This document shows positions 8,798 through 32,723 of a stretch of DNA of 36,065 nt, piece by piece. The position numbers and the translations under genes were made by a program. Origin of the DNA: a virus; the IMG/VR virus record IMGVR_UViG_3300034198_025142, positions 1-36,065 of that record; one strand, given 5' to 3'. The notes beneath the pieces are model-generated. The model had not been told where the DNA came from. It was given only the letters and a program-made list of their open reading frames with translations, and ran no database searches. Position 1 is the first letter of the stretch. The number at the start of each line of letters is the position of its first letter.

Positions 8798-10495
8798 TTA
8801 ATTACCTGTTTTTAAAGAACTCTTTAATAATCCATTTACTTTTGCATTATATGTGTAAGGAACAATTGCTCTAATATCTATATTGATAGAGGAAAGTGTT
8901 TCCATTCCTGCTCCTAGATCATAGAATATACCATTCCTATCTTCCCATCCTCCTGATATAATTACTACGTCATCCTTACCCATTACTATGTCTCCAAATT
9001 CATCAAATCCTATTTCAGGAGAATTTGGATTTTGAGCTTTTGCTGCCTCATTTTCTTCTCCCACAAAATATAAAGATACCGAATCAACACCTTCTATTCC
9101 CTCTATAGCAGCTATTAAATCAGATCTAGGTATTTTATCTCTTCTTCTAATGTTAAGGAAATAATCACTAAGGGTATTTGTTATAGTTGTTTTTAGTGTA
9201 TCGGGATCGTTTCCTTCGAACATAGTTAAAGCTATATTTACCACGTACCTTTTTATAACTGGGTCTAATATCTTAACCTCTGTAGTAACTATTTTTTGTC
9301 CACTCTCGTCTAATAATTGATATATTCTATCCCTTTGTGGTTGAGTTAGCTTAAATCTTGAAACAGGAATATCGAAATAAGTCTCGTTGCTTTTTAGTGT
9401 TAACTGAATATCTGGAACGAGTATTAAATAGATAATATTATCATCATCAATATATTGATCATCAAATGTTGTAAAAGCTTCTATTATTGAAAACTGTCCA
9501 AATTTTTCAAAGAAAGTTATATAATTAGTTGGATTGGCTAAAACAAAACTTCTAGAAGTTTTTGGAGCTATCAATCTAGTTAAATCTACTGATTCTTGAT
9601 TCGCACCCATTTGAGGTGCAATTGTACAAGAAACTTGTAGAACTTCAGATAATGTAACATTATTTCCAAATAAATCAGTTCCGTCGGAGTCAAAAGCAAA
9701 TATTGCTTGTGAAGAATCATCAAGTATAAGATTTCCAGAAGTTCCAGAAGATTCCAAATATGTAACCTCTATTACTGATCCAGGAGCTGGTGGTAATCCA
9801 AAATCTCTATTACCAAAAAAGATATCTATACCAGATATAAGAGAACTTTTTACTAAGTACCCTAATCCATTTCTAGGAATATCGTATAATGAATCATATC
9901 TCTTCCATTCTACCCCATTAACCTTAACATAAACTTCAAAATTCTCTATACCAGAAGTACCTCTCGAAGATATATTAAAACTTTGTAAAAAATTTCCACC
10001 TCCGGTATACTGATTTACAGCAAGAGTACCTTCCATTATTGAACAAATTAATGATGAAGTTCCATCAAGATTTAGTCTTGTGTATTCCTGCGGGAATTTT
10101 AACAAATATGTTTTACCATTGTTTACACATTTTATCTGTGAATTTTTAGGTATAAGTACTGCACTTCCTCCTATAGATTCTATATTTTTTCCATTCCATC
10201 TGATAGAAACCTCTCCCTTCGCTGATATATTTCTAGTTGGATTGTGTCCTGCAAGAGTAGCTAAACCATATATGGAAGACTCACGAGTAGCAGTATTTAT
10301 ATTTAATTCAGTTATAGAATCCTCAATAAAGAATAATACAAACTGAGAAAGGTTATCTAATACAAATATTATTTGCCCCCATACAGACGCAACGGTAAAT
10401 AACTGATTGGACATTCCATATCTTGCCTGAATTAACTCAAAAGTTTGAGATATTAGATCGGATATTTTTGCTCTATTTTTTGATAATAAATCCAT
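8798..10495 (-). CDS. Baseplate wedge protein, gp6 / Baseplate_J-like (565 aa)
   Basis: It matches the gp6/J wedge theme. It has an N-terminal helical part (about 1-70), a region in which conserved small beta domains include the IPKNSQIKCVNNGKTYLL pattern (about 115-135), and a C-terminal part at about 415-480 with the J-like sequence DTLKTTITNTLSDYF followed by IPRSDLIAAIEGIEGVDSV. In T4, gp6 dimers form the inner ring of the baseplate that joins the wedges. It sits directly after the gp25-like gene, the conserved order in contractile-tail phages. Its length is a little under T4 gp6 (about 660 aa). The start is ATG after an A/T-only leader without a Shine-Dalgarno motif. No hydrophobic segments suggest membrane insertion. 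Confidence 0.8.
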   Translation of the reverse strand: MDLLSKNRAKISDLISQTFELIQARYGMSNQLFTVASVWGQIIFVLDNLSQFVLFFIEDSITELNINTATRESSIYGLATLAGHNPTRNISAKGEVSIRWNGKNIESIGGSAVLIPKNSQIKCVNNGKTYLLKFPQEYTRLNLDGTSSLICSIMEGTLAVNQYTGGGNFLQSFNISSRGTSGIENFEVYVKVNGVEWKRYDSLYDIPRNGLGYLVKSSLISGIDIFFGNRDFGLPPAPGSVIEVTYLESSGTSGNLILDDSSQAIFAFDSDGTDLFGNNVTLSEVLQVSCTIAPQMGANQESVDLTRLIAPKTSRSFVLANPTNYITFFEKFGQFSIIEAFTTFDDQYIDDDNIIYLILVPDIQLTLKSNETYFDIPVSRFKLTQPQRDRIYQLLDESGQKIVTTEVKILDPVIKRYVVNIALTMFEGNDPDTLKTTITNTLSDYFLNIRRRDKIPRSDLIAAIEGIEGVDSVSLYFVGEENEAAKAQNPNSPEIGFDEFGDIVMGKDDVVIISGGWEDRNGIFYDLGAGMETLSSINIDIRAIVPYTYNAKVNGLLKSSLKTGN

Positions 10496-10497
10496 TT

Positions 10498-10869
10498 TTA
10501 TAATATTTTAATTCCTAATATGGGGTTTCCTTTTATGGCAAAATCTATAACACAAGCATCTCTTGTATCGCCTCTAATAAATCCCACATCAAATTCAACA
10601 TTAAATGTAGAATATGCCAAGGGGACATAAGTAAATAAATGTAAATCTATAGCTCTAGTTAAAGTGTTCTGATCTACCTCAAGGTCAAATATAAGACCTT
10701 CTAGATCTATACCAAAATATGGATCCCCTAGAACCTCTCCAGGGCTTGTCATCATACAATTTTTAATCATACCAATAAGTATTTCTACTTGGTCATCGGT
10801 ATGTAAAAGTCCCTCTTTGTATCTTGGATCATCAGGATTCCTTGGATAAATTTCAGAATATCTTGCCAT
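10498..10869 (-). CDS. Baseplate wedge protein, gp25-like (123 aa)
   Basis: The size and pattern fit the gp25/GpW family: a short N-terminus, a helix (HTDDQVEILIGMIKNCMMT), then SPGEVLGDPYFGIDLEGLIFD and a central helix (DQNTLTRAIDLHLFTYVPL), finishing in beta strands (AIKGNPILGIKIL). In T4, gp25 with gp6 and gp53 forms the wedge core that triggers sheath contraction. The usual EPR-like motif is not visible as such; GDPYFG takes that position. It ends two bases before the gp6-like start. Upstream it is separated from the 259-aa gene by the homing endonuclease, which appears to have been inserted at this junction. Confidence 0.8.
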   Translation of the reverse strand: MARYSEIYPRNPDDPRYKEGLLHTDDQVEILIGMIKNCMMTSPGEVLGDPYFGIDLEGLIFDLEVDQNTLTRAIDLHLFTYVPLAYSTFNVEFDVGFIRGDTRDACVIDFAIKGNPILGIKIL

Positions 10870-10903: not shown

Positions 10904-12109
10904 TTATTTTATAGTCTTTTCACCTTTATTGTTATAGACCCAAAATTCAAAAGAAATTCCTAGACCAAGACATGCTTGTTTTTTCATTTTATTAAGAGAG
11001 ATGTTTGTTTCGTATGTGTATTTAGATTTAACTTCTATAACCTTACTTTCAGAAAGAATATAAATATCAGGATAATACCTCCTTTTCTTTTCCTCAGAAT
11101 CCAGATACAATATTCTTCCAGTATATTTTTCAATTTCCTTATTGGATACAATTATATCTTCTTCCATGTATCCGGCGTCAAGTAAGTCCTTTAGAGCAAA
11201 TCCCTCGTATCCCTGTATTTTTTCTACTCTACCAGAAGGAAAAATAAATATTTTTTTCTTGTATGATGTTTCTAAAGACTTCTCGAAAGATTCAGTATAA
11301 TGAAAAGCATGTTCCACTCCATACTTCCATAACATTGTTTTTTTAAATTTTTTCTTAAAATCGTGACTTTGTACATACCAATCAGTACCTCTTTTTCTTC
11401 TATTAGTTTCTTTAGATTTATTTCTTATCTCCTCTGAACACATACTAGAATTTCCTCCGTATTTTAAATTATTAGTTATCCTAGATTTTTCTTTTACCTC
11501 TGGATTATCCAAAGAGTGTTCAAATCCATATTTTTCTTTGTTTGTTTTTCTTTTCTTGTCTTGTGTTTCTTTTAATTTAGTCGGATGCCCTCCATATTTT
11601 TCTGAAAATGTATTCTTTACTTTATTTTTAAATTCTTCGGTCTCAGTATAAAAATCTACCCCGTACTTTTTCCTGTTATTATTCCTAATTTTTTCTAAAG
11701 CTCCTGGAACTTCCATAGGATTAGTTGTACCGTTATTTTTCATCATAGATCTATCAGTCTTCTCCTTGTTATATTTTTTAACACATAAATTATCCATACA
11801 CGTCGCATAATAATTAACAGGGTTTGTTGGTTTTAATCCATATCGGTCTATTGAAAACTTTGGTTTTTTTGAAAACATTCTAGGCGAGTCACAATAAGGG
11901 CATCTCTCAATTTCATAAAAATTAAACCACACATGATAAAATCTCTGCTGGATAGGAATTTTATCAGATTCGTAAATTAAGTCAAGAAATGATGTAAGCG
12001 ATTTTAGTTGAGATATAGAATCTTGATCCTTAGGAAGATCCCTCATTATAGTTCCGAAAGCTTTACCGGTCTTAGATCTCCAGTCTTCAATTTTTTGTAA
12101 TATACACAT
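10904..12109 (-). CDS. Free-standing homing endonuclease: zinc finger, KYG repeats, PD-(D/E)XK nuclease (401 aa)
   Basis: Three parts are visible. Cys70, Cys73, Cys104 and Cys109 form a likely zinc finger. Residues about 148-285 carry six repeats about 23 residues apart, each with KYG or a variant (148, 171, 193, 216, 239 as KRG, 262), very Lys/Asn rich and probably DNA-binding. The C-terminus has PDIYI at 347-351 and IEVKSK at 358-363, the two halves of a PD-(D/E)XK nuclease active site. The architecture fits phage mobile endonucleases that nick or cut intergenic sites and spread by recombination. It has no role in tail assembly, although it lies between a structural gene and the gp25-like gene. 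An 8-bp hairpin overlaps its ATG and may limit translation. It could also be a Vsr-like repair nuclease, but the repeats argue for homing. Confidence 0.8.
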   Translation of the reverse strand: MCILQKIEDWRSKTGKAFGTIMRDLPKDQDSISQLKSLTSFLDLIYESDKIPIQQRFYHVWFNFYEIERCPYCDSPRMFSKKPKFSIDRYGLKPTNPVNYYATCMDNLCVKKYNKEKTDRSMMKNNGTTNPMEVPGALEKIRNNNRKKYGVDFYTETEEFKNKVKNTFSEKYGGHPTKLKETQDKKRKTNKEKYGFEHSLDNPEVKEKSRITNNLKYGGNSSMCSEEIRNKSKETNRRKRGTDWYVQSHDFKKKFKKTMLWKYGVEHAFHYTESFEKSLETSYKKKIFIFPSGRVEKIQGYEGFALKDLLDAGYMEEDIIVSNKEIEKYTGRILYLDSEEKKRRYYPDIYILSESKVIEVKSKYTYETNISLNKMKKQACLGLGISFEFWVYNNKGEKTIK

Positions 12110-12150: not shown

Positions 12151-12930
12151 TCAATTCCACTGCAAGAAGTATGAAGGTGTATTCTCGTCTTTTATCATTT
12201 GTATAATCTCCTGTTTTTCAGTTGACCCTATAGTTTGTATGTTATTATAATTAACTCTAACACCGCCAGGGAGATTATACTCGAATGTACCAAGTAATCT
12301 ACCAATATTAATTTTTGCCTCTGCTAGACAAAACCTAACAAATAATTCGTCATCATATAGATTTTCTTCTGGAATATCTATGTAACCTCTAATACCAACA
12401 TCAGTACCAGTAAATAGAGTAGACGAACTTCCTCCGTCTGTCTGATATGTTCTATTTGGATCTCGACCAAGTATAGTAAGACGCTTAGTATTTTTATTAT
12501 AATTAAAAGCGTAAGTCTCTAATAGATATGCTTTAGCAAGATCAAAGAAAGAATAAAGAACTGTTCTATAAACTAAGTTATCACCAGCAAAAGGCGAAAG
12601 CATAAGTTCAGATCCTAATAATTTTGAATCGCCAAAATCTTTATCGGGTGTTCCTATTAACCCTGATCCATTTACTTCTCTAACCTCGTATATAGATCTA
12701 ACACACGAAGGCATTTGTATTTGTCTAGTTGCTCTAAATGCAGGAGTAGAAAATAATTCCCTCCCTAAAACAAATATTCTGTCCTCTACTGCATATTGGT
12801 AGTTATCATAAAAATATGCTCTAGCTCTTTTTATAATCCTTTTTATTTCCTGTTCATTCAGGTTATAAGGCAAAGCACAAGAATGAGATATATCATCTCT
12901 TATTTCCTGTATTAGATCTGCTTCGGTCAT
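12151..12930 (-). CDS. Putative neck or connector structural protein (259 aa)
   Basis: I do not recognise a named family. The N-terminus is helical and charged (TEADLIQEIRDDI, then LNEQEIKRIIKRARAYFYDN), followed by beta-rich segments, a second helical stretch (SFFDLAKAYLLETYAFNY) and a C-terminal helix after GGVRVNYNNIQTIG. The helical pattern with conserved-looking YFYDNYQYA resembles head-tail connector and neck proteins seen in large phages, but this is a weak impression. It lies between the amidoligase-like gene (6-base gap) and the homing endonuclease, in the run of baseplate genes. It has no signal peptide or membrane segment. The leader (AAATAATTAAATTGAT) has no Shine-Dalgarno motif. 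Confidence 0.55.
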   Translation of the reverse strand: MTEADLIQEIRDDISHSCALPYNLNEQEIKRIIKRARAYFYDNYQYAVEDRIFVLGRELFSTPAFRATRQIQMPSCVRSIYEVREVNGSGLIGTPDKDFGDSKLLGSELMLSPFAGDNLVYRTVLYSFFDLAKAYLLETYAFNYNKNTKRLTILGRDPNRTYQTDGGSSSTLFTGTDVGIRGYIDIPEENLYDDELFVRFCLAEAKINIGRLLGTFEYNLPGGVRVNYNNIQTIGSTEKQEIIQMIKDENTPSYFLQWN

Positions 12931-12936
12931 ATCAAT

Positions 12937-14379
12937 TTAATTATTTGATTTGAAGTTTATTCCAGGTATTCCTGAAGGCTTAGAATTATTATCCGAGAAT
13001 CTAACAGGCTGAGATGGTTGGTCTCCTTCATTTCTATTCGGGAATTGTTTCTTCTTTAAACTTCCTTTTAGTTTCTTATCGTCTTCAGCATCATTAACAA
13101 CTTCTGTTTCTGGAGAAATACTAGCTAGTTTTCCTATAAATCCTGATCTTATTATACCTCCAAATACCTCACAGTTAATTTCCTTGTCTTTATTATCTAT
13201 ATAGGTGTCGTGTACGGTATTAGTAAAATAAAGATCTGATATCATTACCTTAGATCTGTTTATTTCATTATTTGTTATAAGATCTGATTCTTCTATAGTA
13301 CAGTCGTTTAATTTACAATTGAATAATCTACAGTTTAATAAATTACCCGCAATCTCACCTTCGAGTATATCATAATCCTTAAGTAGATACGCTCTAGTTG
13401 TTTTTATATCTTTAAGCTGGAATTTACCTAATGAACTATCATAGTTTATTATTCCCTCTTTAATATTATTTTCTACTATTAAATCATAAAGAATTTCCCT
13501 TATAGTAATAAAGAATGACCTTAATATTTGTGGATCGGATCTAAGATCCACCATTATATTCATGTGTGGATAATTCTTTTGGAAAGTATCAGGATCTATA
13601 AATGTTGATGAGTTCTTATAAATCTCGTTTAAGAACATTCTTAACACTTTTAAGTCATTTTCAGTGAATCCGTTATTGAATCTTAATACACCAACAGTAT
13701 AAGTGATTATATAATCAATTACTTCTTTTACTGCAGTATATCTTTTTTGGTAATCTTTACCTCCTAAATATCTAACCTCAAAATATCCCTCGGGAAGTTT
13801 TAGGAAATTAATTCCCATATTTTTTTCTAATGGTACTTCAAATAGATTTTTATCTATAAAAGAGATGTTACTAGGATCAACAAATTTATTAACTGGCAAT
13901 ATTCTTTTAATTGACTTAGCATATAAAGATCCCATTCTTTCAGGAAATCTTTTGTATATGTAATTCTCATCAAATCCAAGAATATATTTAAGTGTATTAA
14001 TTTGTCCCATAGGAGGAACTTCTGGATAGATTGATGTATCAATACTTACACCAAATTGGAAAGCACATCTCTTATCTGTATATCCATTCTCATCTATCCA
14101 TTTGAAAGTCTTAATAAGGATTACTATTGCCTCGAAATAAGGAAGAGGACCCGTGACGAATTCAACCATCTTGGATCCTCCTGAGTAATCTGGCTCTAAT
14201 TTAAAAATATCCTTAGTGGGTTTAAAATTAGAATGATATTTATTAAAAAGTAATACCTTTTTTCCTAATACCTTTCCTAATTCTCTCGCTATATCATTCC
14301 TATTTAAGTTACTGTAGAACTCAAATTCAAAACCCAATTTAGAAGAGTAGAAAAAATCATTAGTAAGTAAATTAGCCAA
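12937..14379 (-). CDS. Amidoligase-like protein with pentapeptide-like tail (480 aa)
   Basis: The N-terminal 230 residues resemble the amidoligase (COOH-NH2 ligase, glutamine-synthetase-like fold) theme: LGFEFEFYSN at 15-24, EPDYSGGSKMVEFVTGPLPY at 62-81, FQFGVSID at 107-114 and YFEVRYLGG at 199-207. Members join carboxyl and amino groups using ATP. Around 335-420 there is a change to NCRLFNCKLNDCTIEESDL and similar, a pentapeptide-like right-handed helix. The last 60 residues are polar and disordered-looking. The likely start is a TTG at 14379, since the next in-frame Met (residue 71) would remove the conserved GFEFEF motif. It starts 3 bases after the stop of the S1-domain gene. A virion protein is as likely as an active enzyme. 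Confidence 0.55.
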   Translation of the reverse strand: MANLLTNDFFYSSKLGFEFEFYSNLNRNDIARELGKVLGKKVLLFNKYHSNFKPTKDIFKLEPDYSGGSKMVEFVTGPLPYFEAIVILIKTFKWIDENGYTDKRCAFQFGVSIDTSIYPEVPPMGQINTLKYILGFDENYIYKRFPERMGSLYAKSIKRILPVNKFVDPSNISFIDKNLFEVPLEKNMGINFLKLPEGYFEVRYLGGKDYQKRYTAVKEVIDYIITYTVGVLRFNNGFTENDLKVLRMFLNEIYKNSSTFIDPDTFQKNYPHMNIMVDLRSDPQILRSFFITIREILYDLIVENNIKEGIINYDSSLGKFQLKDIKTTRAYLLKDYDILEGEIAGNLLNCRLFNCKLNDCTIEESDLITNNEINRSKVMISDLYFTNTVHDTYIDNKDKEINCEVFGGIIRSGFIGKLASISPETEVVNDAEDDKKLKGSLKKKQFPNRNEGDQPSQPVRFSDNNSKPSGIPGINFKSNN

Positions 14380-14382
14380 TTT

Positions 14383-15492
14383 TTATTTTTCTATTAATTG
14401 TATTTTAAGAGTAGAACTATCTACGCTTAAGATCGAGAAATCAACCGACTGCCCAACCTCATATTCTTTAATAGATCTTACTAATTTCTCCTTTTCGATA
14501 AGGCCATTCAATCCATTTTCCATTTTAATGAAAATACCGAAAGTTTTAATTTTAGTAACCTCTCCTTTATATATTTTCAAATTGGTATTTTCCCCTAAAA
14601 CTTCGGAAGAAGTGTCCTTCATCTCTTGAACATTTTTCATTTTTTCGTTTGGTTGGGAAACTGATAGATTGATTCTTTGAGGATTTTTTATATCAATTAC
14701 ATAGAACTCGACAGTATCTCCTGCTTGATATTTTTCTAATGATGATCTATTGGAATCATCAATAGAGATTATTCCTGTATAGATATCGTTCCATTCAACG
14801 AATACACCATTATTGGACAATCCAGTAACTGTACCTTCGTATTTATTAGAAAATGAAAGATTCTGAACTTCTCTGTCGATAATTTTTCTTAAATATTTTT
14901 TGAAAGATACGACAAAAATATCTCTTTTTTGGTCATATACCTCGACCATTACCGTTAAATGTCTACCTACGTAGTCTGCAAAGTTCATAATTCTATTTGC
15001 TGCAGCAAGACTACCAGGAAGGAAGCACTCTATTCCTGATAGATCAACCATAAATCCTCCGTTACAAACATTCTTAACTTTAACTTTAAATGCACAATCC
15101 TCATCTTTAATAGATCTGTGCAATTCGTTTTTAAGTGCTTTCTCATATCCTGCTGAAACTGATCCGTTAAAAGATCCGGAAGAATCTTTATGGATAACTA
15201 CGTCAATAGATTGGCCTGGATTTATATCTATAGCAGGATATCCAAGCTTCATCATATTTTTTTCTTCTTTCTTTGTATCGATTATAATAGTCTGTCCAAA
15301 GGACGTCTCACCTAATGCAATACCTTTATCAGTATCAATAGATGTTATTGTTACTATTTCAGAAGAATTATTCTGTATATCCTTTCCTGTTATTTTTTTA
15401 CTTTCCTCTGGAAATGTTCCACTATAAATAGCTTCGAGTCTTTCTCTTTCAGCTGTATCATAATCGAAGGAACTAAAATTTTTGTTTTTCAT
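14383..15492 (-). CDS. S1-domain RNA-binding protein (ribosomal protein S1-like, 369 aa)
   Basis: Three S1 OB-fold domains are clear: about residues 134-199 (VKNVCNGGFMVDLSGIECFL), 216-279 (GTVTGLSNNGVFVEWNDIYTG) and 306-367 (GEVTKIKTFGIFIKMENGLN then GLIE). A degenerate first domain may lie at 45-118, with the bridging sequence VSAGYEKAL, as in cellular S1. This matches a shortened bS1, which has 4-6 domains and binds mRNA on the 30S subunit to help start translation. It is cytoplasmic, with no membrane segment. It sits between the 1700-aa structural gene and the amidoligase-like gene, in the same operon. Most genes here lack Shine-Dalgarno motifs, so an S1-like factor favouring phage messages is plausible. 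An alternative is RNA binding for other ends, such as a transcription or RNase partner. Confidence 0.85.
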   Translation of the reverse strand: MKNKNFSSFDYDTAERERLEAIYSGTFPEESKKITGKDIQNNSSEIVTITSIDTDKGIALGETSFGQTIIIDTKKEEKNMMKLGYPAIDINPGQSIDVVIHKDSSGSFNGSVSAGYEKALKNELHRSIKDEDCAFKVKVKNVCNGGFMVDLSGIECFLPGSLAAANRIMNFADYVGRHLTVMVEVYDQKRDIFVVSFKKYLRKIIDREVQNLSFSNKYEGTVTGLSNNGVFVEWNDIYTGIISIDDSNRSSLEKYQAGDTVEFYVIDIKNPQRINLSVSQPNEKMKNVQEMKDTSSEVLGENTNLKIYKGEVTKIKTFGIFIKMENGLNGLIEKEKLVRSIKEYEVGQSVDFSILSVDSSTLKIQLIEK

Positions 15493-15548
15493 GTTATTTG
15501 GGTTTATCTTTGTTTGTAGTATAAAATTGCATTAAAATTTCCAAGAAA

Positions 15549-18500
15549 TTAGTATTTTTTTAGATTAAAAGCTTTTTTAAGTTCAGATTGTAGTTCCGGG
15601 ATAGGATATACAGGATCTGCGGACCCAAGAAAGAATTTAAATAATCCAGAAACATCTGCTGCACTTCTTAAAAATTCATCTATATAAACAACATAGTATG
15701 TATTCTTTAGGCTCATTCTTCTCCATACAGGATGATCATCATTCATTGCTATAGGATTTAATATATTTAAAACGTTTCTTCCTATAAGTACAGCAAGAGG
15801 CCAAGGTATCCTAGCTAATAATTCGGAAGAAGCTGTAATTTTTGGTAGAACTATTTTATCTCCGAGTGGTGTTTTTGGTAAGCTTTTAAAGTATATCCAG
15901 AACAAACTATAAACTATTCTAGCTGGTGGAGGTGCTCCTAATCCTATTAAAGCCTGTTCTATCATATCCGTTGGTCTTGCAGGAGGAAATACCGGAACTT
16001 TTAATATATTCAAAAAAGGCGGTATATCAGGAGATTCTGGACTTATTAAATTAGTAACTAATGTTTTAGATAACTTCTGGATATCATTTGGTTCTAAATT
16101 TAAAAACTTAGGGGAGTTTACATCATTAATCTCTGGAAAAGCCGCTTCAAGAGCACCGGCATCTAAAGACTTAATTAAAGCTTCTGCTAGGAAAGATTTT
16201 ATTTTAGATCCTGGAATAGTAACTTGTATAATACCACCTAATCCTGGTATTTGTGTTAACGAATCTTGCTTTAAAGGGAAAACAGTAGGTAACTCAAAAG
16301 CAGCTACCGCATTACCAAATCCTCCATTAAGAGAACCAAGACATGACAGAGGTCCTTTCGGATAAGGAAAATTAGATATCAAAGGTTCCTCCGTATCCAA
16401 AGGTCTAACGGGATCAAAAGGACCTATTCTACTTAATCCAAGTTTTTTAGAAACTAATTTCTTTAGATCTTTAACTCTTATAACTAGTATAGGATTTTCT
16501 CCCTCGTATCTAACATACCTAGAGAAATCTTCCGGCGTATATTCTATCTTGGATAATCCTTCCATTATCCTTATCTTTATTGCCTCTATTATAGGATTTC
16601 TCTTCTTTAAGAATTTAAGAGCTTTTGGTGCTGAGTTTGTTATTTTTATTTCTGGAAATTTAAAAACTCCTTCATATTCACTATTTTCAATAGGTGAAAA
16701 AGCACCCTCCCTTACTTTCTTTATTACTGAAAATTTATTTCCCCAAAGGATAACTTTAGTTATTACAAGGGATACACCTCTTATTTGTTTTACTAAATCA
16801 CTAAATTCATCATCAGTCATAAGTCTAGGATCTTTATCCTTCCTCATGAATATCTTACTAGAATTAGAAACCTCAAAATTTTGTACTAAATATTTAGGAG
16901 GACAAACTATACGCATTAGTTTTAGTACCTCCCTCATCTCATCCTTGAAGTTTATAAAATCCGGACAATCAATAGGAACTAGACTTGCCCGCATCTCTTT
17001 TAATATTCTAAGAGATTTTATTATACCAGGGATGTCTATTTTTAATTTGTCCTTATCCTTAGGAAAATATATTGACTTAGGATCAGGTATACTATCATTA
17101 AGATAATTTTTAATTAAAACCTTTAAAGAATCTTTTCTTTGTTTAACAATCTCCTTTAATGCAGCAGTCTCCTCAGAAATATCAGGCTTAGGTTCATCGA
17201 GCAAAGCACTTTTCTTTTTATGCTCTTTCTCTTTATCCCTTATCCTTTTCTTAAGATCCCTTTCTTTTGCTTGTAAATCTCTAAGGGCTTGTGTATTTCC
17301 TGGAGGAGGAACACTGTCAAATATTTTTGTAATGTTAGCTTTAATATCATTTAAAACCCTATCAGATGAATCCAAATTATCTAGTCCAAATCCCGGGAGT
17401 GGTATCAACTTATCCGGAATACCAAATGATATTGCTTGTTTTATTTTTTCCATTGGATCCTTTACTACAGGATCGGATTTTCTTGGTATAAATCTAGGAC
17501 CTCTGATACCAGTTAAAAATAAAGAACTACCTGTTATGAATTCCTTTATATAAACCAGAGGAGTAGGCATAAATCCACCAATAAAAGGAATAAAAATAAC
17601 CAGAATACCCAGGTTAAAAGGAAGAGGTATAAGTATTGGAGGAACTATAGTCCAAATCATAGGAAGGGGTATTCTTATGTAAGGATTACCGTCTATAGGA
17701 TTAGGAAAAGGTATAGGTATAAATGCTGGAGGTAAATATCCCACTGGCCAATATTTAAGACCCAATCTAACACTAGGTCCCTGGGCTAAAAAATACTTAG
17801 GATCTTCTATAGGGGGTAAACCATTTGGATAAGGTAAAAGGCCAACCTTAGTAATATCTTTACAAAACTGCTTCCACCAACATCTCTGAAACATGGTTGG
17901 ACAATCTGAACTAGGTGGGGAAGACATAAGATAATTACCATTTTCAAAATCTGAACCCGCTTCACCACAACAAACAGGAGGACAATTTTCTTTGTCATCT
18001 TCAGCTGGTGGAGAATCTGCCCCTGCACATTTTATGTCAGAGAATCTTTTACCTACGTTATCGGGACTTAAAGATTCATTTATCTCATCTATTTTTTGAG
18101 CAGACAAAAGCATTATTTCTTTTATCTGTTCATATTTCTTTTTTATATCAAAATAATTTTCCGTTATTCTAATACCTATTACATCTGAAGCAGGTAAAGT
18201 TTTCGCTAGACCCTCTCCTGCTTTTCTAGCCTGTGTTTTAAGATTTTCTAAAGCTGGCTTTATATAGGAATTCTTATTTTCTAAATATTTAGAGTTCCAT
18301 TTAGTTTTAAAGTTACTGTAGAAATCTGTAAAAACTGGCGTTGGTTCTCCACCATCAGTAAAACCCGCAGGTCTTGCTTTGGAAGGATCCCTAGCATCGT
18401 TATCTCCTCTTTCTTCTGCAGTAAAAAATAGCCAATTGGATGAGGATTTTTCTATAAGGTTTCCATAGAGTATTCCTCTGTCCTCTACTATTTTAGCTAT

Positions 18501-20651
18501 TATGCTTTCTTTAGAATCATTTGTGTTTATTATCTTTTCTATGAAATCATAAAACTTAGCAACATCAGGAAATCCTGTTTTTATATTCTTTATCTTTATG
18601 AATTGATAGCTCTTTAAATATTCAGGAAAATAATCATTTAACAATCCACCATTATCAGCATGCTCGTTTCCTATTTTTATCTTTTGTTCGTCAGGCTCGT
18701 TTACTTCCGACAGAGGTTCAGAGCTAGCTCCTGTAAAACTTATCTTAGACGGTTTCTTTGTTTTCTTGTAAGGAAGAGGAGATCCATAGTCAGTAACAAA
18801 AGATAATTCAAATTGAAGCTCGCTTAATGGCTTATCGAATTTAGTTTTATATCTTACCGAAAAATCCTCTAAAGCTTTTAAGAAATCGTATCCGTATGAA
18901 TCATATGTATATGATGTTCCAGTTAAAGCTAATTCTAATGGGCTTTTAAAAACCCTTGCATTTATATCTAAACTTGCATTACCCTGACCATAAACATCAG
19001 AAGTAGCCGTGCTAGAAGGAATAAAAGATTTTTCAACATCCTCTATAGAAACAGGAACTCCTTTTTTCTGAGATAATAAAGCTATCGCTGCATCTAATAG
19101 ATCCTGTGTTTCTTGTATTTTATTCTCTATAATAGATATGAAATTACCTTCAATCATTATAGATCTTATATCTTCTACATTTTCCTTAAATTTAGTAATA
19201 CCCTCAGTAACTGGCCAAGATTGTGATTGATCGTTATATATTATAGGGGATAATCCAGCATCTATTTGATTGTTAAAAAGTATTTCAAGATCACCATCGC
19301 TTAATTCCGTATCATAAACATCCAAGAGAAAAAGATTCTCAGTAAATATATTATTGTTATTAAGGAATACAGTCTTATCGTTATTATAATTTTGTATTTG
19401 ATTTATTAACTCCTTTTGATAGATTAAAATTTGATCGTTATAAGTTAATATTGATATACCTATTTGAAAATCAGATGGATCACCTCCTTCGTTGACAGGT
19501 ACTCTTGATATCCAATTATCATATAAGGATTTTTGATACTCGTATACTGCTTCATAATGATAAAGTATCTCTTCGAGATTTCTCTCTATCATCTGCCATC
19601 TCGCCAATAGCTTTACATCATCTTCTAATTTTTTACCCTTCTCTAAGGCAGAATTAACACAAGCATCTATAGCATCTACATCAACAGTTGGAGGCTCAGG
19701 ATTATTTACTTCCTCTCTTTTAAATTCATAAACGGGAGGATCGCAAAATTCATCTATAACATCATCAAAACTAGATTTAGTTAAAATAGGATCTCCTGTT
19801 ATAGGATCTTCGGGTATTCCTGGCAGACAGTCGTCGTCTATTATTGGATCGTCTCCGTCCGGGTAAAAATTAGCATCAAATCCATCTATTCTTTCGGATT
19901 GTGTATTTTCATCAATATCCTTAAAATCACAAGGATTTGAATTTTTATTCTGGTCCTTTAATAGGCTATTTATTTTCTTTAAAGCACCATCTAAATTTAT
20001 CTCGTCCCCTCCGATCTTAACATGTACTATCTGAGTTTTATTCATTATGAATTCTAAAGGGATTTCAAATCCCAATATTTTCATCTTTCTTTTTTTTCTA
20101 GATCCTGAATTAGATGGTTTTCCTAATAAAAGCGGATCCAGATTATCAAATATTTTTTCGTTTATTTTTTGTAAAAAATCCGGTTTTTTTCTCTTTAAAT
20201 ATTTAGTAATTCCTTCAGATGGTATTTTTTTAGAAAATCCTAAATCTCTACCACCCGAAATTTTTACACCAAGATCATTTTCTGAAATAGGAGAGTTATT
20301 TTTATATTCATCAGACTTTAAAAGATCGTTATATAATTTAGAATCTTCTCTTTTTAAGGATTCCATTAATATTCTACTATATAAATCGTCCCCCTCGTGT
20401 TTACAAGCAAGATCCTCTATTTCTTTAATAGGTATAGGAAGAGGTTGTGGCTTTAAACTTTGTATTATAGAATCAACCTCCTTTTGGCTTTTTTCTAATT
20501 CTTTATCAAATCCCTCTTTTGATTGTAAATCTTCGTATGGTATGTTAAAATCCTGCCCTCCTGATATTATACTTAATATCTCCTCAGTGGACATTTTTGA
20601 AAAATCCTTTCCTAATAAATCATCTATTCTAGATCCTATATCTTCCGCCAT
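15549..20651 (-). CDS. Giant virion-associated protein of unknown fold (1700 aa)
   Basis: I do not recognise its family. It begins with an acidic, Ser-rich N-terminus (SRIDDLLGKDF), has an acidic Pro-rich stretch near 240-320, and long helices at about 340-530. A Cys-rich segment at about 885-935 (CPPVCCGEAG, then CPTMFQRCWWKQFC) could bind metal. Residues about 960-1040 form an unusual Pro- and Ile-rich hydrophobic stretch (IPLPMIWTIVPPILIPLPF), followed by GILVIFIPFIGG, which could insert in a membrane. A Lys/Glu coiled coil lies near 1120-1150. The last residues pair aromatic helices with a charged end. It lies directly after the gp5-like spike gene and before the S1 gene, so a baseplate or tail-hub role is inferred. 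Tape measure is unlikely, since continuous heptads are lacking. Confidence 0.7.
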   Translation of the reverse strand: MAEDIGSRIDDLLGKDFSKMSTEEILSIISGGQDFNIPYEDLQSKEGFDKELEKSQKEVDSIIQSLKPQPLPIPIKEIEDLACKHEGDDLYSRILMESLKREDSKLYNDLLKSDEYKNNSPISENDLGVKISGGRDLGFSKKIPSEGITKYLKRKKPDFLQKINEKIFDNLDPLLLGKPSNSGSRKKRKMKILGFEIPLEFIMNKTQIVHVKIGGDEINLDGALKKINSLLKDQNKNSNPCDFKDIDENTQSERIDGFDANFYPDGDDPIIDDDCLPGIPEDPITGDPILTKSSFDDVIDEFCDPPVYEFKREEVNNPEPPTVDVDAIDACVNSALEKGKKLEDDVKLLARWQMIERNLEEILYHYEAVYEYQKSLYDNWISRVPVNEGGDPSDFQIGISILTYNDQILIYQKELINQIQNYNNDKTVFLNNNNIFTENLFLLDVYDTELSDGDLEILFNNQIDAGLSPIIYNDQSQSWPVTEGITKFKENVEDIRSIMIEGNFISIIENKIQETQDLLDAAIALLSQKKGVPVSIEDVEKSFIPSSTATSDVYGQGNASLDINARVFKSPLELALTGTSYTYDSYGYDFLKALEDFSVRYKTKFDKPLSELQFELSFVTDYGSPLPYKKTKKPSKISFTGASSEPLSEVNEPDEQKIKIGNEHADNGGLLNDYFPEYLKSYQFIKIKNIKTGFPDVAKFYDFIEKIINTNDSKESIIAKIVEDRGILYGNLIEKSSSNWLFFTAEERGDNDARDPSKARPAGFTDGGEPTPVFTDFYSNFKTKWNSKYLENKNSYIKPALENLKTQARKAGEGLAKTLPASDVIGIRITENYFDIKKKYEQIKEIMLLSAQKIDEINESLSPDNVGKRFSDIKCAGADSPPAEDDKENCPPVCCGEAGSDFENGNYLMSSPPSSDCPTMFQRCWWKQFCKDITKVGLLPYPNGLPPIEDPKYFLAQGPSVRLGLKYWPVGYLPPAFIPIPFPNPIDGNPYIRIPLPMIWTIVPPILIPLPFNLGILVIFIPFIGGFMPTPLVYIKEFITGSSLFLTGIRGPRFIPRKSDPVVKDPMEKIKQAISFGIPDKLIPLPGFGLDNLDSSDRVLNDIKANITKIFDSVPPPGNTQALRDLQAKERDLKKRIRDKEKEHKKKSALLDEPKPDISEETAALKEIVKQRKDSLKVLIKNYLNDSIPDPKSIYFPKDKDKLKIDIPGIIKSLRILKEMRASLVPIDCPDFINFKDEMREVLKLMRIVCPPKYLVQNFEVSNSSKIFMRKDKDPRLMTDDEFSDLVKQIRGVSLVITKVILWGNKFSVIKKVREGAFSPIENSEYEGVFKFPEIKITNSAPKALKFLKKRNPIIEAIKIRIMEGLSKIEYTPEDFSRYVRYEGENPILVIRVKDLKKLVSKKLGLSRIGPFDPVRPLDTEEPLISNFPYPKGPLSCLGSLNGGFGNAVAAFELPTVFPLKQDSLTQIPGLGGIIQVTIPGSKIKSFLAEALIKSLDAGALEAAFPEINDVNSPKFLNLEPNDIQKLSKTLVTNLISPESPDIPPFLNILKVPVFPPARPTDMIEQALIGLGAPPPARIVYSLFWIYFKSLPKTPLGDKIVLPKITASSELLARIPWPLAVLIGRNVLNILNPIAMNDDHPVWRRMSLKNTYYVVYIDEFLRSAADVSGLFKFFLGSADPVYPIPELQSELKKAFNLKKY

Positions 20652-20652
20652 A

Positions 20653-21567
20653 TTACACTCCTATTATTCCGCTAGTACCGGAAGTACCACTAGTTCCAGA
20701 TGTTCCAGCTGTACCAGCAGTTCCTGTATTAGGTATACCTATAGGAGAATTTGCGTCAAGAGGTACTGCTGGAAATTCTGGTGCATTCTCCCTAGTAACT
20801 CTTACCGTTTGACTTGTAGCTAATTGTTCAAAGCTAGATGCTAGGGTGGAATTAACCCCGGGGGTTGCCGGCATTTTACTATCTATTGATATAGCTAATT
20901 TTTTTAGAAAATCCCATAGTGGCTCTGCGCAAACTGCAGAAAACAAAGGAGAGTGTCCAAGATTAGTAGTTTTACCATCCATCCAAACTTCCTCTGAACT
21001 GTGCTTTATTCTTGTTACTGCAGTGTTCTCTATTTCCTGATCTGCATACTTAGTTATTTTTCCTCCTTTTAATTCTATCGAAGCTGTATCATCCGCATGA
21101 GTTATTAGTATAGAGTTATCATTTCTTATAATAATCTTAGATTCCTTTAAATCTATTACTAGTCCTTTCTCTACTGTATAATACATTTTAAGCCTCTCTA
21201 TACCGTCGTATATTAAAGAATGAGCACCATCATAACTATTCCTGATCTCATCTATTAAGTCAGGTGATAACTCCTGTACAGCTTTATATTCAGGACTATA
21301 GTAGTTGCCATTATTAAATTGGACATGTACAACAGATCCAAGTTTAGGAACAGATATTCTTCCAGATCCTCCTCCTAGACCGTAGCTCTGCTCTAATCTT
21401 TGGTAAGACCAAGGAAGCTCAGTATCAGCCAAATCATCAAAAATCCCAAAAATTCTAACCTTGGCTCTTCCCTTGAATTCAGGATCCTTATTGTCTACTA
21501 CAACACCAAGATAGTGTGATATCTCCGTATTAGGCTTTTCTAATTTATTTCTGTCTATTAATCCCAT
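20653..21567 (-). CDS. Baseplate spike protein, gp5-like OB fold without lysozyme (304 aa)
   Basis: Residues about 19-56 (YLGVVVDNKDPEFKGRAKVR, then IFGIFDD and LPWSYQ) match the OB-fold of T4 gp5 and VgrG-type spike proteins. A beta-rich middle at about 130-205 (KGLVIDLKESKIIIRNDNSI) resembles the start of a spike prism. T4 gp5 has a lysozyme domain in the middle; none is seen here, and the protein is roughly half the length of T4 gp5. The C-terminus ends in a GTAGTAGTSGTSGTSGTSG tail. The spike would sit at the tail tip under the hub and pierce the envelope. The next gene starts one base after its stop, and it follows the repeat-tailed structural gene, as expected for a hub cluster. Confidence 0.8.
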   Translation of the reverse strand: MGLIDRNKLEKPNTEISHYLGVVVDNKDPEFKGRAKVRIFGIFDDLADTELPWSYQRLEQSYGLGGGSGRISVPKLGSVVHVQFNNGNYYSPEYKAVQELSPDLIDEIRNSYDGAHSLIYDGIERLKMYYTVEKGLVIDLKESKIIIRNDNSILITHADDTASIELKGGKITKYADQEIENTAVTRIKHSSEEVWMDGKTTNLGHSPLFSAVCAEPLWDFLKKLAISIDSKMPATPGVNSTLASSFEQLATSQTVRVTRENAPEFPAVPLDANSPIGIPNTGTAGTAGTSGTSGTSGTSGIIGV

Positions 21568-28588: not shown

Positions 28589-28756
28589 TCAATTATCTTT
28601 TTTTCTATTTCTCTGCTCAGTCAAATTTCTAAGCCTGATTAGGTTACCCATAACCTTAGCTCTTTCTTTAGACCCATCATTAGTCTCATTTTTCTTTCCA
28701 AGAAGACCCATCTGTTTAGCTGCTTTTCTTCTTTCTTTTCTATTCGGTAGATTCAT
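28589..28756 (-). CDS. Small basic protein with RKERRKAAKQ motif (55 aa)
   Basis: This short frame is below the usual length cut-off but is well formed: ATG at 28756, TGA at 28591-28589. Its first residues are MNLPNRKERRKAAKQMGLLG and it ends RNRKKDN. It is rich in Lys, Arg and Asn. NRKERRKAAK-like starts recur in small phage proteins of unknown function, and RNA or DNA binding is a reasonable guess. It overlaps the Nudix gene end by 17 bases in another frame and is followed in the same frame by the GTG gene. I judge it real from its codon content and the filled gap; otherwise a stretch of about 157 bases would be empty. Confidence 0.65.
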   Translation of the reverse strand: MNLPNRKERRKAAKQMGLLGKKNETNDGSKERAKVMGNLIRLRNLTEQRNRKKDN

Positions 28757-29303
28757 TTTCTTCTTCTTTACTGTTAAAAATATCTTTAAAAGTTTTTATA
28801 AATAGTGTGCTAACTAAAGAGTCTTCTAGGTTTAAAGCATCATCCACTGAAACTAGTTCAAATTTTGTGTCCTTCTCTGATTTAGATCCGTCAGTCTTTT
28901 TTTCTTCAGAAACTAATCCCGTAATATTTACAGCAAAGCAAGGATTAGAATTAATAACCATTTTTGATGTGTATAGACTTCCTAAGAAATCCCATCTTTT
29001 AAGATCTTCAACTAGAAATCCGGATTCCTCCTCCATCTCTCTAACTGCTGTTTGATATATGTTGGAATCTTTATCGTCTTGAGATCCTGTTATTAATGTT
29101 TTAGACATTCCTCCGGGTCTTTGATCTAGAACCTCGGATATTATCCCGATCTTAACTGGAAATCCCTCTTCGTTTAGAGTATATGGCATTATAATAACAC
29201 CTGGATTTATCTGACGAATGAATAAATGACCATCTATGTCTACGACCTCTCTATTCTTCGTTTTTTGTATTACCGTTTGTTCCGCTTTTTCGTAAAGTTC
29301 CAT
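28740..29303 (-). CDS. Nudix hydrolase (187 aa)
   Basis: The second half of the Nudix box is intact: REMEEESGF at residues 88-96 (consensus REUXEEXGU). The first half is degenerate, with G73 one residue off register and no Glu at the usual GX5E place. Nudix enzymes hydrolyse nucleoside diphosphates linked to another group, using Mg2+ held by the EE pair. A short acidic/Lys linker (about 130-145, EEKKTDGSKSEKD) follows, then a C-terminal helix. It overlaps the previous gene by 53 bases and the small basic gene by 17. The position next to sugar-nucleotide genes suggests a nucleotide-sugar or NAD-type substrate, but this is only context. Confidence 0.75.
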   Translation of the reverse strand: MELYEKAEQTVIQKTKNREVVDIDGHLFIRQINPGVIIMPYTLNEEGFPVKIGIISEVLDQRPGGMSKTLITGSQDDKDSNIYQTAVREMEEESGFLVEDLKRWDFLGSLYTSKMVINSNPCFAVNITGLVSEEKKTDGSKSEKDTKFELVSVDDALNLEDSLVSTLFIKTFKDIFNSKEEENESTE

Positions 29304-29829
29304 TCGATTTATATATATCTTTTATATTTATCCTTAGACTCTCTTTTATTAATTCTATGTCTAGATCTCTAACAACAAATTCTATAATTTCCTCCTCAGC
29401 ATCTTCAAAAGAAGTAGTTAGAACATTATAAAGATTCTTTGTAGGTAGATTTAGCTTAAGATTAATACCAACCTCAACCCAATTGGGTTTTTGTTTTTGT
29501 AACAGAGATACTATTGGATTTTCTAAATTAGGAACCTTAGCCTTAGATTCAGAAAGCATTACATTTCTAACTGGAAGATTATTATAGGATACTGGCTCAT
29601 TGTGTACTATGGATGACGAATCTATTTGCATCATGTACTCATTCAATATTGAATAATTTATTCTAGTGCCTCCTTTAAAGTTTATCCATAATATACCACT
29701 GGTAGGATCTTTAAAAACACTTTCATATTCACAAACGGTTCCAGTATTATCACCCTTAGTCCATTTATAGAGGAAAGGTTTAAGCTCTCTATCGAGGATC
29801 TCAACATCTATTTCTTCTATGTTTTCCAT
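29251..29829 (-). CDS. Hypothetical protein (192 aa)
   Basis: No family is recognised. It is a soluble protein with an acidic N-terminus (MENIEEIDVEILDRELKPFL), beta-rich middle (TSGILWINFKGGTRINYS) and a helical, Glu-rich C-terminal half (SFEDAEEEIIEFVVRDLDIE). I prefer the ATG at 29829, which follows the stop of the previous gene by one base and has an A-rich leader typical here. An upstream in-frame ATG at 29874 would add 15 residues (MWNLLKRILKIKKNN) but overlap the previous gene by 44 bases. Its end overlaps the Nudix gene start by 53 bases, implying translational coupling. Confidence 0.6.
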   Translation of the reverse strand: MENIEEIDVEILDRELKPFLYKWTKGDNTGTVCEYESVFKDPTSGILWINFKGGTRINYSILNEYMMQIDSSSIVHNEPVSYNNLPVRNVMLSESKAKVPNLENPIVSLLQKQKPNWVEVGINLKLNLPTKNLYNVLTTSFEDAEEEIIEFVVRDLDIELIKESLRINIKDIYKSNGTLRKSGTNGNTKNEE

Positions 29830-29830
29830 A

Positions 29831-30094
29831 TTATTTTTTTTTATTTTTAATATTCTTTTTAGGAGATTCCACATCTTCCAGCATTTTAATTATTTCGTAT
29901 CCATCCCTTTTAAGAGATGGTATCCATCCTGTTAAGTCTTTTTCTATAATCCAAACATCCTGGTATTTTTTACTACCGAAGCTATTTATTATAAGTATAT
30001 TGTCCATATAGGAAGTTTTGTGCTTGGTTATTTCTAAGTAATATTTACTATTCTGCTTATAAATAACCATTTTATAACCCTTCTCTATAGTCAT
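29831..30094 (-). CDS. Hypothetical protein (87 aa)
   Basis: No family is recognised. The protein begins MTIEKGYKMVIYKQNSKYYL, has an internal WIIEKDLTGWIPSLKRDGYE block and ends in a Lys/Asn-rich, strongly basic tail (KKNIKNKKK). A second in-frame ATG at residue 9 is an alternative start. A TATAAATT sequence (30107-30100), one base off the T4 late promoter core, lies just upstream. The 40-base gap to the methyltransferase gene (30095-30134) is otherwise A/T-rich and holds nothing else I can name. Confidence 0.5.
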   Translation of the reverse strand: MTIEKGYKMVIYKQNSKYYLEITKHKTSYMDNILIINSFGSKKYQDVWIIEKDLTGWIPSLKRDGYEIIKMLEDVESPKKNIKNKKK

Positions 30095-30099
30095 AACAT

Positions 30100-30107
30100 A
30101 ATTTATA
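30100..30107 (-). promoter_or_regulatory. TATAAATT, candidate late-promoter-like site
   Basis: One mismatch to TATAAATA, placed 6 bases upstream of the ATG at 30094 in a 40-base gap. A transcript from here would start almost at the ATG. Chance is a real possibility in this AT-rich sequence. Confidence 0.2.
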
Positions 30108-30134
30108 TTCTACCTATCCTAAATAATTTCAAAA

Positions 30135-30755
30135 TTAAACAGTTTTATAAGCTGGATATAATTCTTCCAATTGCTCAGGACTTATTAAATCTAATATTTC
30201 TTGTCTATTTTCATTAAAAAATTCCCATGTTGTTGCGTCACTAGGAAAAACATCAAGGCTCTCGCTTATGTCCCTAGTTAATATACCAACTCCCCAATCA
30301 GTATCCACAGTAACTAACTTAAGATCGTTTCTATATAGCCTAAGCTTTATTAACGAAAGATATACAGTCCCGTTCCACTCACCGTTGGCAGGAGCAGAAA
30401 AAACAGGGGACTCCGCCGCGTGATATTTAGTAGGCGGATTACAATCATGAAGAACTATAGTACCTCCCTCTGATAGATGTCTCAAAGAATTTTCAATATC
30501 CTTATCGACTTGAAAATCTAAATGCAAGCCATCAATAAAAATTATATCGAATTTCTGATCAGTATCTATACTATCAAAAAAAGAATCGGAAGTCATTATA
30601 TGTGTGGTGTGGTCTGAAACTGGACTAGGATCTACGCCTATTTTATTTTCGCAACATATCTCCTTGAAACATTTTCCGTCCCTTACCCCAATTTCTAGAT
30701 AATTCTTATATCCCTTGTTTTCTATTATTGTATTAATTATCTCCCACCTTTTCAT
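30135..30755 (-). CDS. Class I SAM-dependent methyltransferase, Methyltransf_24 type (206 aa)
   Basis: The SAM-binding motif I is NYLEIGVRDGKCF (about 18-30), followed by motif II GVDPS (about 40-44), IIFIDGLH (71-78) and GGTIVLHDCNPP (97-108), the Methyltransf_24 pattern. Such enzymes often act on sugars, lipids or small carbohydrates. The protein is normal in length and has no membrane segment. It lies 10 bases after the GT2 glycosyltransferase gene, so the two may act in sequence, for example methylating a sugar added by the transferase. A role in modifying phage DNA is less likely, as no DNA recognition domain is seen. Confidence 0.75.
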   Translation of the reverse strand: MKRWEIINTIIENKGYKNYLEIGVRDGKCFKEICCENKIGVDPSPVSDHTTHIMTSDSFFDSIDTDQKFDIIFIDGLHLDFQVDKDIENSLRHLSEGGTIVLHDCNPPTKYHAAESPVFSAPANGEWNGTVYLSLIKLRLYRNDLKLVTVDTDWGVGILTRDISESLDVFPSDATTWEFFNENRQEILDLISPEQLEELYPAYKTV

Positions 30756-30765
30756 ATCGATATTT

Positions 30766-31476
30766 TTATAAATTCCATTTTTCTTTAAAAATAGGATAAG
30801 ATCCGCTAGTCATTTTATACATTAGATCGTAATCCTTAACCACTCTTTCTGTTGTCTTTCCTATGTTATTATCGTGATGCTCTACTATAGATTTTGTAAC
30901 CAGAGCATGTCTCACTCCATTAGCGATTATCTCCATAGCATAATCATTATCACAAAACCAATGACTAAATCTTTCGTCAAGATCCCCTATTATATTATAG
31001 ATTTCTCTCTTATGAACTATACACCATCCAGATATTTGCTTTCTTATATCATACCCCTCTATCAACCCAGTATCTTGATTTATTCCATAAAGAGGTTGTG
31101 TCATTGGACATAAAGGCGAAAAGGACATGAAATTTGGTAACTGTTCTGAAGCTTCCAATATATTGGTAAACCAATTTCTTTTAAATTCCAGATCATTATT
31201 ACATAAAGCAACCCATTCGGAATTTCCTTTTTTTCTACCAAAGTTTAGAAATTTGTGATACCCATAGGGAAGTGGTGCAGAATAAGTTTTTACATTTTCT
31301 GCTAGATGCTCCCAAGTTATTCCTGGTTCTGATTCTACAACTATAATATTAAAAAGATCGTCAGCTTTATTTTCTGAAGCTATTAAAGAAAGTATACAAT
31401 TAGTTGTTAAGGTTCTGCAATAATCATCCTTAGCATAACTTATTATAACAACATCGAGTAATTTAGATTGCATCAT
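30766..31476 (-). CDS. GT2-family glycosyltransferase (236 aa)
   Basis: The fold pattern fits a GT-A, family 2 enzyme: LLDVVIISYAKDDYCRTLTT at the start, CNNDLEF near 92-98 (a DxD-like NND), SGWCIVHKREIYNIIGDLDE then FCDNDYAMEI (149-183), which is the typical acceptor-binding and catalytic part. It would move a sugar from an activated nucleotide to an acceptor. Activated donors may come from the sugar genes upstream, such as the GDP-linked 3,6-dideoxy sugar or a CMP-linked one. It overlaps the kdsA end by 14 bases, so it is coupled with the Kdo genes. The acceptor is unknown: host envelope polysaccharide, a virion protein or phage DNA base are options. Confidence 0.8.
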   Translation of the reverse strand: MMQSKLLDVVIISYAKDDYCRTLTTNCILSLIASENKADDLFNIIVVESEPGITWEHLAENVKTYSAPLPYGYHKFLNFGRKKGNSEWVALCNNDLEFKRNWFTNILEASEQLPNFMSFSPLCPMTQPLYGINQDTGLIEGYDIRKQISGWCIVHKREIYNIIGDLDERFSHWFCDNDYAMEIIANGVRHALVTKSIVEHHDNNIGKTTERVVKDYDLMYKMTSGSYPIFKEKWNL

Positions 31477-32709: not shown

Positions 32710-32723
32710 AAAAAATCTAATCT

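What the first reader, a model, noticed from the sequence alone, without database searches (positions are those of the whole stretch)
14383..15492. Phage-encoded S1-domain protein inside the baseplate operon
Three clear S1 domains and a possible degenerate fourth make a short bS1-like protein. Cellular S1 binds mRNA on the 30S subunit. Most starts in this window have no Shine-Dalgarno motif, so a phage S1 could favour initiation on its own A/T-rich leaders, which would matter most in Bacteroidota, whose ribosomes hide the anti-SD tail. Its place among tail genes, not replication genes, hints at late expression or packing in the virion.
Basis: partly seen in the sequence, partly recalled or inferred. 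Interest (0 to 1): 0.75.

Follow-up and report, generated by a model that had tools for sequence, protein, structure and literature searches.

The report
Phage-encoded ribosomal protein S1 homologue
A large group of giant phages that probably infect Bacteroidota carries, fixed among its tail genes, its own shortened version of ribosomal protein S1, the protein that feeds messenger RNA to the ribosome, so the phage may re-tool its host's ribosomes with it.

Summary
Window 14383-15492, minus strand, encodes 369 aa with three Pfam S1 domains (E 2.5e-21). The 'degenerate fourth' is real: AlphaFold2 gives four OB folds plus an N-terminal helix, and the best structural matches are ribosome-bound bS1 chains. 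The protein corresponds to domains D1-D4 of cellular bS1. D2 is specifically bS1-D2-like, D1 is recognisable in deep relatives, and D5-D6 are missing.

It is conserved in 82 IMG/VR loci down to 30% identity. In 81 of them it sits in the same tail operon, beside an amidoligase-like gene. Lak phages, Mahaphages and LR756500 carry kin. All phage copies form one clade apart from Bacteroidota bS1 (100/100). Smaller Bacteroidota myoviruses with the same baseplate gene lack it.

Most likely it binds host 30S subunits through uS2 and acts in initiation (inferred). The A-rich, SD-less leaders are not evidence for S1: S1-less Bacteroidota phages have them too. A virion role is possible but weakened. Huge-phage rpS1 and an initiation role were already proposed (PMC7162821). 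New here are the domain assignment, single phage clade, tail-operon lock and a conserved S1-specific upstream box.

The parts
14383..15492 (-). Phage bS1 homologue, 369 aa, domains D1-D4
   Evidence: PF00575 x3, E 2.5e-21; phmmer to E. coli bS1 chains, E 1.6e-21; AlphaFold2 and Foldseek top match bS1, E 8.5e-23
15415..15456 (-). N-terminal helix (residues 13-26), candidate uS2 anchor; motif FDYD..ERERLEAIYSGT
   Evidence: Helix 13-26 in the model; Bacteroidota bS1 N-terminus HMM 9.9 bits, 0 of 500 shuffles as high; structural alignments pair it with residues 1-3 onward of ribosome-bound bS1
15160..15363 (-). OB fold D1 (residues 44-111), degenerate by sequence
   Evidence: AlphaFold2; bS1-D1 HMM specific in deep relatives (32.9 and 23.2 bits) but silent in the window protein
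14893..15090 (-). S1 domain D2 (residues 135-200), most conserved part, GGFMVDLSGIECFLPGSL
   Evidence: bS1-D2 HMM 39.1 bits against 7.3 or less for other domains; 91% mean identity within the clade
14656..14844 (-). S1 domain D3 (residues 217-279)
   Evidence: PF00575; F231 in all 37 sequences
14389..14574 (-). S1 domain D4 (residues 307-368); His of the RNA-binding set replaced by Glu333
   Evidence: PF00575; E in 20/20 of the clade, H in 16/17 deep relatives
15493..15548 (-). 56-nt spacer upstream of S1, the widest gap upstream of a gene in the operon stretch 59-28582, apart from the 793-nt end region
   Evidence: Gap list; alignment of 18 relatives
15534..15544 (-). Conserved box TTGGAAATTTT at -52 to -42 of the S1 start; promoter or mRNA operator, unknown
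   Evidence: 96% identical in 18 relatives versus 76% for the rest of the spacer; in 13 checked loci found nowhere else except one copy inside the S1 gene in two of them
12937..14379 (-). Glutamine-synthetase/amidoligase-like fold plus beta-solenoid; always the next identified operon gene downstream of S1
   Evidence: Amidoligase_2 E 0.0013, below cut-off; AlphaFold2 pTM 0.78 and weak Foldseek matches to glutamine synthetases, E 1.6e-4; adjacency in relatives
12151..12930 (-). Neck/head-tail adaptor-like gene
   Evidence: phrog_211 E 1.1e-6
8798..10495 (-). Baseplate wedge (J/gp6-like)
   Evidence: phrog_219 E 4.5e-28
10498..10869 (-). gp25-like baseplate wedge
   Evidence: phrog_261 E 0.007, weak; conserved position
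15549..20651 (-). 1700-aa protein directly upstream of S1, unidentified; not recognisable in deep relatives
   Evidence: No Pfam or significant PHROGs match; absent as a match in deep loci
20653..21567 (-). Baseplate hub gpV-like OB protein
   Evidence: Phage_base_V E 1e-4; phrog_37871 E 1.2e-14

Best explanation
The gene encodes a phage-lineage-specific bS1 homologue made of the anchor helix and domains D1-D4, probably produced with the tail proteins. Steps shown by computation: bS1 homology across D1-D4, a predicted N-terminal helix like that of ribosome-bound bS1, one common phage clade, and strong conservation of D2. Steps inferred: it docks on the host's 30S subunit at uS2 in place of, or together with, host bS1 (the phages searched encode no uS2 of their own). 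It then holds the A-rich leader with D2-D4 near the mRNA exit and so supports or biases initiation during infection. D4 is the domain that in E. coli lies near mRNA nt -12 to -15 (PMC6847099), so the protein stops just after the part that would touch the A-rich stretch. Preference for phage over host mRNA is possible but not supported by the leaders themselves.
For: Sequence: S1 domains; E. coli bS1 hits cover D1-D2 (residues 39-203) as well as 131-366; D2 specifically matches bS1 D2, and D1 matches in kin. Structure: four OB folds plus a helix; the Foldseek ranking is led by bS1 chains (E 8.5e-23); 9gux_B Z 14.0 over 248 residues, model 14-280 to bS1 2-261. N-terminus: Bacteroidota bS1 profile beats all 500 shuffles, and many Bacteroidota bS1 BLAST alignments start at phage residues 3-18. 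Phe147 and Phe157 match the OB2 mRNA pocket Phe120/Phe130 of E. coli (PMC10123108). Conserved under purifying selection in 82 loci. No phage uS2 found. LR756500 also encodes IF3 and Mahaphages encode bS21 or IF3, so the wider group targets initiation. Lak S1 lies near a tRNA guanylyltransferase and an RNA ligase.
Against: No ribosome binding or RNA binding is shown. In the window clade D1 is degenerate, the uS2-pocket lysine (E. coli Lys43) has no counterpart in the sequence alignment, and the D4 His is Glu. NCBIfam rpsA equivalog cut-offs are missed by far (97 bits against 524). The N-terminal motif match is short (19 residues), and the two-part motif varies among deep relatives. The lock to the tail operon is not explained by a general initiation role.
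Confidence: 0.62

Rival explanations
1. Decoy or shut-off factor: a truncated bS1 that occupies uS2 and displaces host bS1, lowering host translation, rather than an active initiation factor.
For: D5-D6 are missing, the D4 His is replaced by Glu and D1 is altered in this clade, while the candidate anchor helix and D2 are kept.
Against: Deep relatives keep the D4 His (16/17) and the aromatics, so the family is not generally RNA-binding-dead; the phage needs translation of its own leaders, which look like those of other Bacteroidota phages.
Confidence: 0.14
2. Virion or tail-assembly protein: S1 is part of, or a chaperone of, the tail, or is packed and ejected with the DNA.
For: Fixed between the hub side (gpV) and neck/baseplate genes in 81 of 82 loci despite about 30% identity; OB folds are common in baseplates (general knowledge).
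Against: Lak and most Mahaphage copies lie outside tail modules, near RNA or DNA metabolism genes or peptidases (one Mahaphage copy has a neighbour with a weak tail-tube match, E 1e-4); smaller phages with homologous baseplates lack it; the closest relatives by sequence and fold are bS1.
Confidence: 0.12
3. Off-ribosome RNA-binding protein: an mRNA stabiliser, RNase cofactor or antitermination factor using generic S1 domains.
For: D3 and D4 score as generic S1 domains; cellular S1 has such roles with T4 RegB and Q-beta replicase (cited in PMC13157829).
Against: Conservation is highest in bS1-specific D2, and a bS1-type N-terminal helix is predicted.
Confidence: 0.12

Closest known systems
Huge-phage rpS1 candidates (Al-Shayeb et al. 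2020, PMC7162821; LR756500 and Mahaphages) and Lak phage S1
   Same: Same family by sequence and tree; same proposed role in initiation; LR756500 also has it in the tail operon.
   Different: That paper could not confirm them as true rpS1 because S1 domains are ubiquitous; in the passages read here it gives no domain assignment and no operon context. The window clade has degenerate D1 and Glu at the D4 His.
Cellular bS1 of Bacteroidota
   Same: D1-D4 order, FDW-type N-terminus and LY helix, D2 signature FLPGS.
   Different: About 25-32% identity; no D5-D6; separate clade with long branches.
bS1 of jumbo cyanophage PhiMa05 (PMC13157829)
   Same: Phage-encoded bS1.
   Different: There it groups with Vampirovibrio-like host proteins, so it was probably captured from such a host; not compared by sequence here.

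Membership tests
bS1 (ribosomal protein S1) | Series of S1/OB domains (4-6) | tested here: met
   Three by Pfam, four by structure prediction
bS1 (ribosomal protein S1) | bS1-specific D1 and D2 (ribosome-binding half) | tested here: met
   D2 HMM 39.1 bits and specific; D1 met in deep relatives, by structure only in the window protein
bS1 (ribosomal protein S1) | N-terminal helix contacting uS2 | tested here: inconclusive
   Helix 13-26 predicted and aligned to bS1 residues 1-3 onward; HMM above 500/500 shuffles. The contact itself could not be tested
bS1 (ribosomal protein S1) | Loop-2 lysine in the uS2 zinc pocket (E. coli Lys43) | tested here: not met
   No Lys at the aligned place in the window clade; Lys or Arg in several deep relatives by eye
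bS1 (ribosomal protein S1) | NCBIfam rpsA equivalog score cut-off | tested here: not met
   Best 97 bits against a cut-off of 524; filed as a bS1 homologue, not as an rpsA equivalog
bS1 (ribosomal protein S1) | Ribosome and mRNA binding | not testable with these tools
   Needs biochemistry
Huge-phage S1 family (LR756500, Mahaphage, Lak) | Common descent of the S1 gene | tested here: met
   Clade 100/100; separate descent rejected, AU p<1e-30, with a long-branch caution
Baseplate OB proteins (gpV/gp5 type) | Match to baseplate OB families | tested here: not met
   No Phage_base_V or baseplate PHROG match for S1; the separate gpV gene is at 20653-21567

The most novel reading that the evidence does not exclude
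The phage bS1 is made with the tail, carried in the virion and delivered with the DNA, so that host ribosomes are re-tooled from the first minute of infection; its own leader box gives it separate control.
Probability: 0.06. Interest if true: 0.85.

Novelty: new member of a known kind. Interest (0 to 1): 0.52.

Why it matters
Earlier surveys set phage S1 aside because S1 domains are common (PMC6375957), or could not confirm it (PMC7162821). The anchor-side homology found here makes bS1 identity much firmer and gives a compact natural D1-D4 bS1. That protein could test how Bacteroidota ribosomes, which do not use SD pairing, find start codons, and whether phages swap ribosomal proteins. The control with S1-less phages also warns that the reported link between phage S1 and missing SD sequences may simply reflect the host phylum.

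Tried and rejected
1. Leader composition as evidence for S1 function: rejected, since five S1-less Bacteroidota myoviruses have the same A-rich, SD-less leaders (47-56% A). 2. Recent capture from a host: not supported; best identity to Bacteroidota bS1 is about 32% and the phage clade is separate. 3. bS21, uS2 or IF3 partners in this clade's own contigs: none found, but all are fragments. 4. RNA structure in the spacer: none (MFE -0.9 kcal/mol, z +1.2). 5. Sigma-70 scan: no excess over shuffles, so the box cannot be called a promoter. 6. N-terminal 140 aa against PDB sequences: no bS1 match; D1 is too diverged for single-sequence search. 7. Hits in E. coli, Listeria, Enterococcus and Acinetobacter 'phage' records are probably host rpsA contamination (cmk-rpsA context). 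8.

Full report
OBSERVATION. Window 14383-15492 on the minus strand is an ATG-started ORF of 369 aa. Pfam S1 matches three stretches (E 2.5e-21; places). AlphaFold2 with a 37-row alignment (mean pLDDT 80.4, pTM 0.56) gives an N-terminal helix (13-26) and four OB folds at about 44-111, 135-196, 217-277 and 308-368.

WHAT IT IS. phmmer finds bS1 structures best; the E. coli bS1 hits cover D1-D2 (query 39-203) as well as later domains. Foldseek is led by ribosome-bound bS1 (9gut_B, E 8.5e-23), and VIA-align 2 gives Z 14.0 for 9gux_B (rmsd 4.6 over 248 residues, model 14-280 on bS1 2-261). HMMs for each Bacteroidota bS1 domain show that the second phage domain is specifically D2-like (39.1 bits; next best 7.3). 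In deep relatives the first domain is specifically D1-like (LR756501 32.9, L196 23.2 bits). The last two are generic S1 domains of D4/D5/D6 type. So the protein is bS1 D1-D4 without D5-D6. The best NCBIfam rpsA score (97 bits) is far below its cut-off (524), so I file it as a bS1 homologue, not an rpsA equivalog.

ANCHOR AND RNA SITES. In E. coli the N-terminal helix stacks Phe5/Phe9 on uS2, Lys43 enters the uS2 zinc pocket, and Phe120/Phe130 of OB2 line an mRNA pocket (PMC10123108). The phage N-terminus (FDYD..ERERLEAIYSGT) resembles the Bacteroidota bS1 N-terminus (FDW[DE] ... LY.[EG]T). A profile of the latter scores 9.9 bits on it, above all 500 shuffles (maximum 7.5), and many whole-protein BLAST alignments with Bacteroidota bS1 begin at phage residues 3-18. 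This is suggestive, not proof, of uS2 binding. F147/F157 match Phe120/Phe130 and are F or Y throughout. D3 F231 is invariant, and D4 F318/F321 are mostly aromatic. The D4 His position is Glu in 20/20 window-clade sequences but His in 16/17 deep relatives. The Lys43 position is not Lys in the window clade.

FAMILY AND CONTEXT. A first scan gave 25 IMG/VR loci at 75-100% identity, and an alignment scan found 161 relatives, best 80 kept, down to about 30%. With two further scans 82 loci are held, 38 of them under about 93% alike. In 81 of 82, S1 lies in the same tail module: gpV-like hub, [1700-aa or other gene], S1, amidoligase-like gene, neck-like, gp25-like, J-like, large tail protein (short loci show only part of it). 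Only the Mahaphage-type L213 lacks it. Named kin are LR756500 (462 kb, same operon order, S1 30% identical), 634-735-kb Mahaphages and Lak phages. PF00575 rings in all 11 such records tested, and in none of five 168-235-kb Bacteroidota myoviruses (MaF61, PTm1, PAU, MA9V-2, pT24) that share the baseplate wedge gene. In Lak and most Mahaphages S1 lies outside the tail module, near Thg1, RNA ligase and DnaB in Lak, and near peptidases, AAA ATPase or topoisomerase in Mahaphages (one Mahaphage neighbour has a weak tail-tube match). A tree puts 13 phage sequences in one clade, 100/100, apart from 36 Bacteroidota and 2 gammaproteobacterial bS1. Separate descent of the two phage groups is rejected (AU p<1e-30), but branches are long, so this shows an old phage lineage under the model used rather than proving one capture.

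MECHANISM. Shown: homology, fold, conservation, context. Inferred: docking on host uS2 (13 related records encode none) and action in initiation. F. johnsoniae work places bS1 D4 near mRNA nt -12 to -15, where A is enriched (PMC6847099), and finds that added bS1 doubled initiation on one SD-less mRNA (PMC9976891). The window's leaders are 54% A with A peaks at -14, -11 and -7 and no SD enrichment. The control matters: S1-less phages have the same leaders. The leaders therefore follow the host phylum and do not show that phage S1 favours phage mRNA. The same confounding may apply to the S1/SD link in PMC7162821 (inference). The Bacteroidota host is inferred from relatives (Prevotella, Flavobacterium, Tenacibaculum, Chryseobacterium phages) and leaders, not shown for this contig.

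UPSTREAM BOX. The 56-nt spacer before S1 is the widest in the operon apart from the end region, and holds TTGGAAATTTT at -52, 96% identical in 18 relatives against 76% for the rest. In 13 checked loci it occurs nowhere else, except a second copy inside the S1 gene in two. It could be a promoter or a site for self-regulation (E. coli bS1 represses its own mRNA; general knowledge). There is no RNA hairpin and no sigma-70 excess, so it stays unexplained.

KNOWN OR NEW. Huge-phage rpS1 and an initiation role were proposed in 2020 (PMC7162821), with the caveat that true rpS1 could not be confirmed. The 2019 survey excluded S1 for ambiguity (PMC6375957). PhiMa05 has a bS1 captured from a Vampirovibrio-like host (PMC13157829). 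New here, as far as the held library shows: the D1-D4 assignment with the ribosome-binding half, the single phage clade, the tail-operon lock with the amidoligase-like neighbour, the clade-specific changes, the S1-specific box and the leader control.

Noticed in passing
window 15534-15544 (-): 11-nt box TTGGAAATTTT at a fixed distance before S1, 96% conserved in 18 relatives and practically S1-specific; function unknown.
   Followed up: partly
window 12937-14379 (-): S1's constant neighbour: a predicted glutamine-synthetase/amidoligase-like fold with a C-terminal beta-solenoid (weak Foldseek E 1.6e-4); also in Mahaphages but away from S1.
   Followed up: partly
window 10904-12109 (-): Homing-endonuclease-like gene (DUF7487, phrog_3339) between neck and gp25 genes, present in only some relatives.
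   Followed up: no
window 28740-36032 (-): Sugar and surface-polysaccharide type cluster: GDP-mannose dehydratase, DegT aminotransferase, SIS isomerase, DAHP/KDO8P synthase, cytidylyltransferase, glycosyltransferase, methyltransferases, NUDIX.
   Followed up: no
window 15549-20651 (-): 1700-aa protein upstream of S1 with no recognisable family; a match is lost in deep relatives while its neighbours persist.
   Followed up: no
phages collection, hits H5, H6, H8, H9, H32, H33: Several 'phage' records carry what looks like ordinary host rpsA, probably chromosomal contamination.
   Followed up: partly
L029 / LR756500.1: LR756500 encodes IF3 as well as S1; Mahaphages encode bS21.
   Followed up: no
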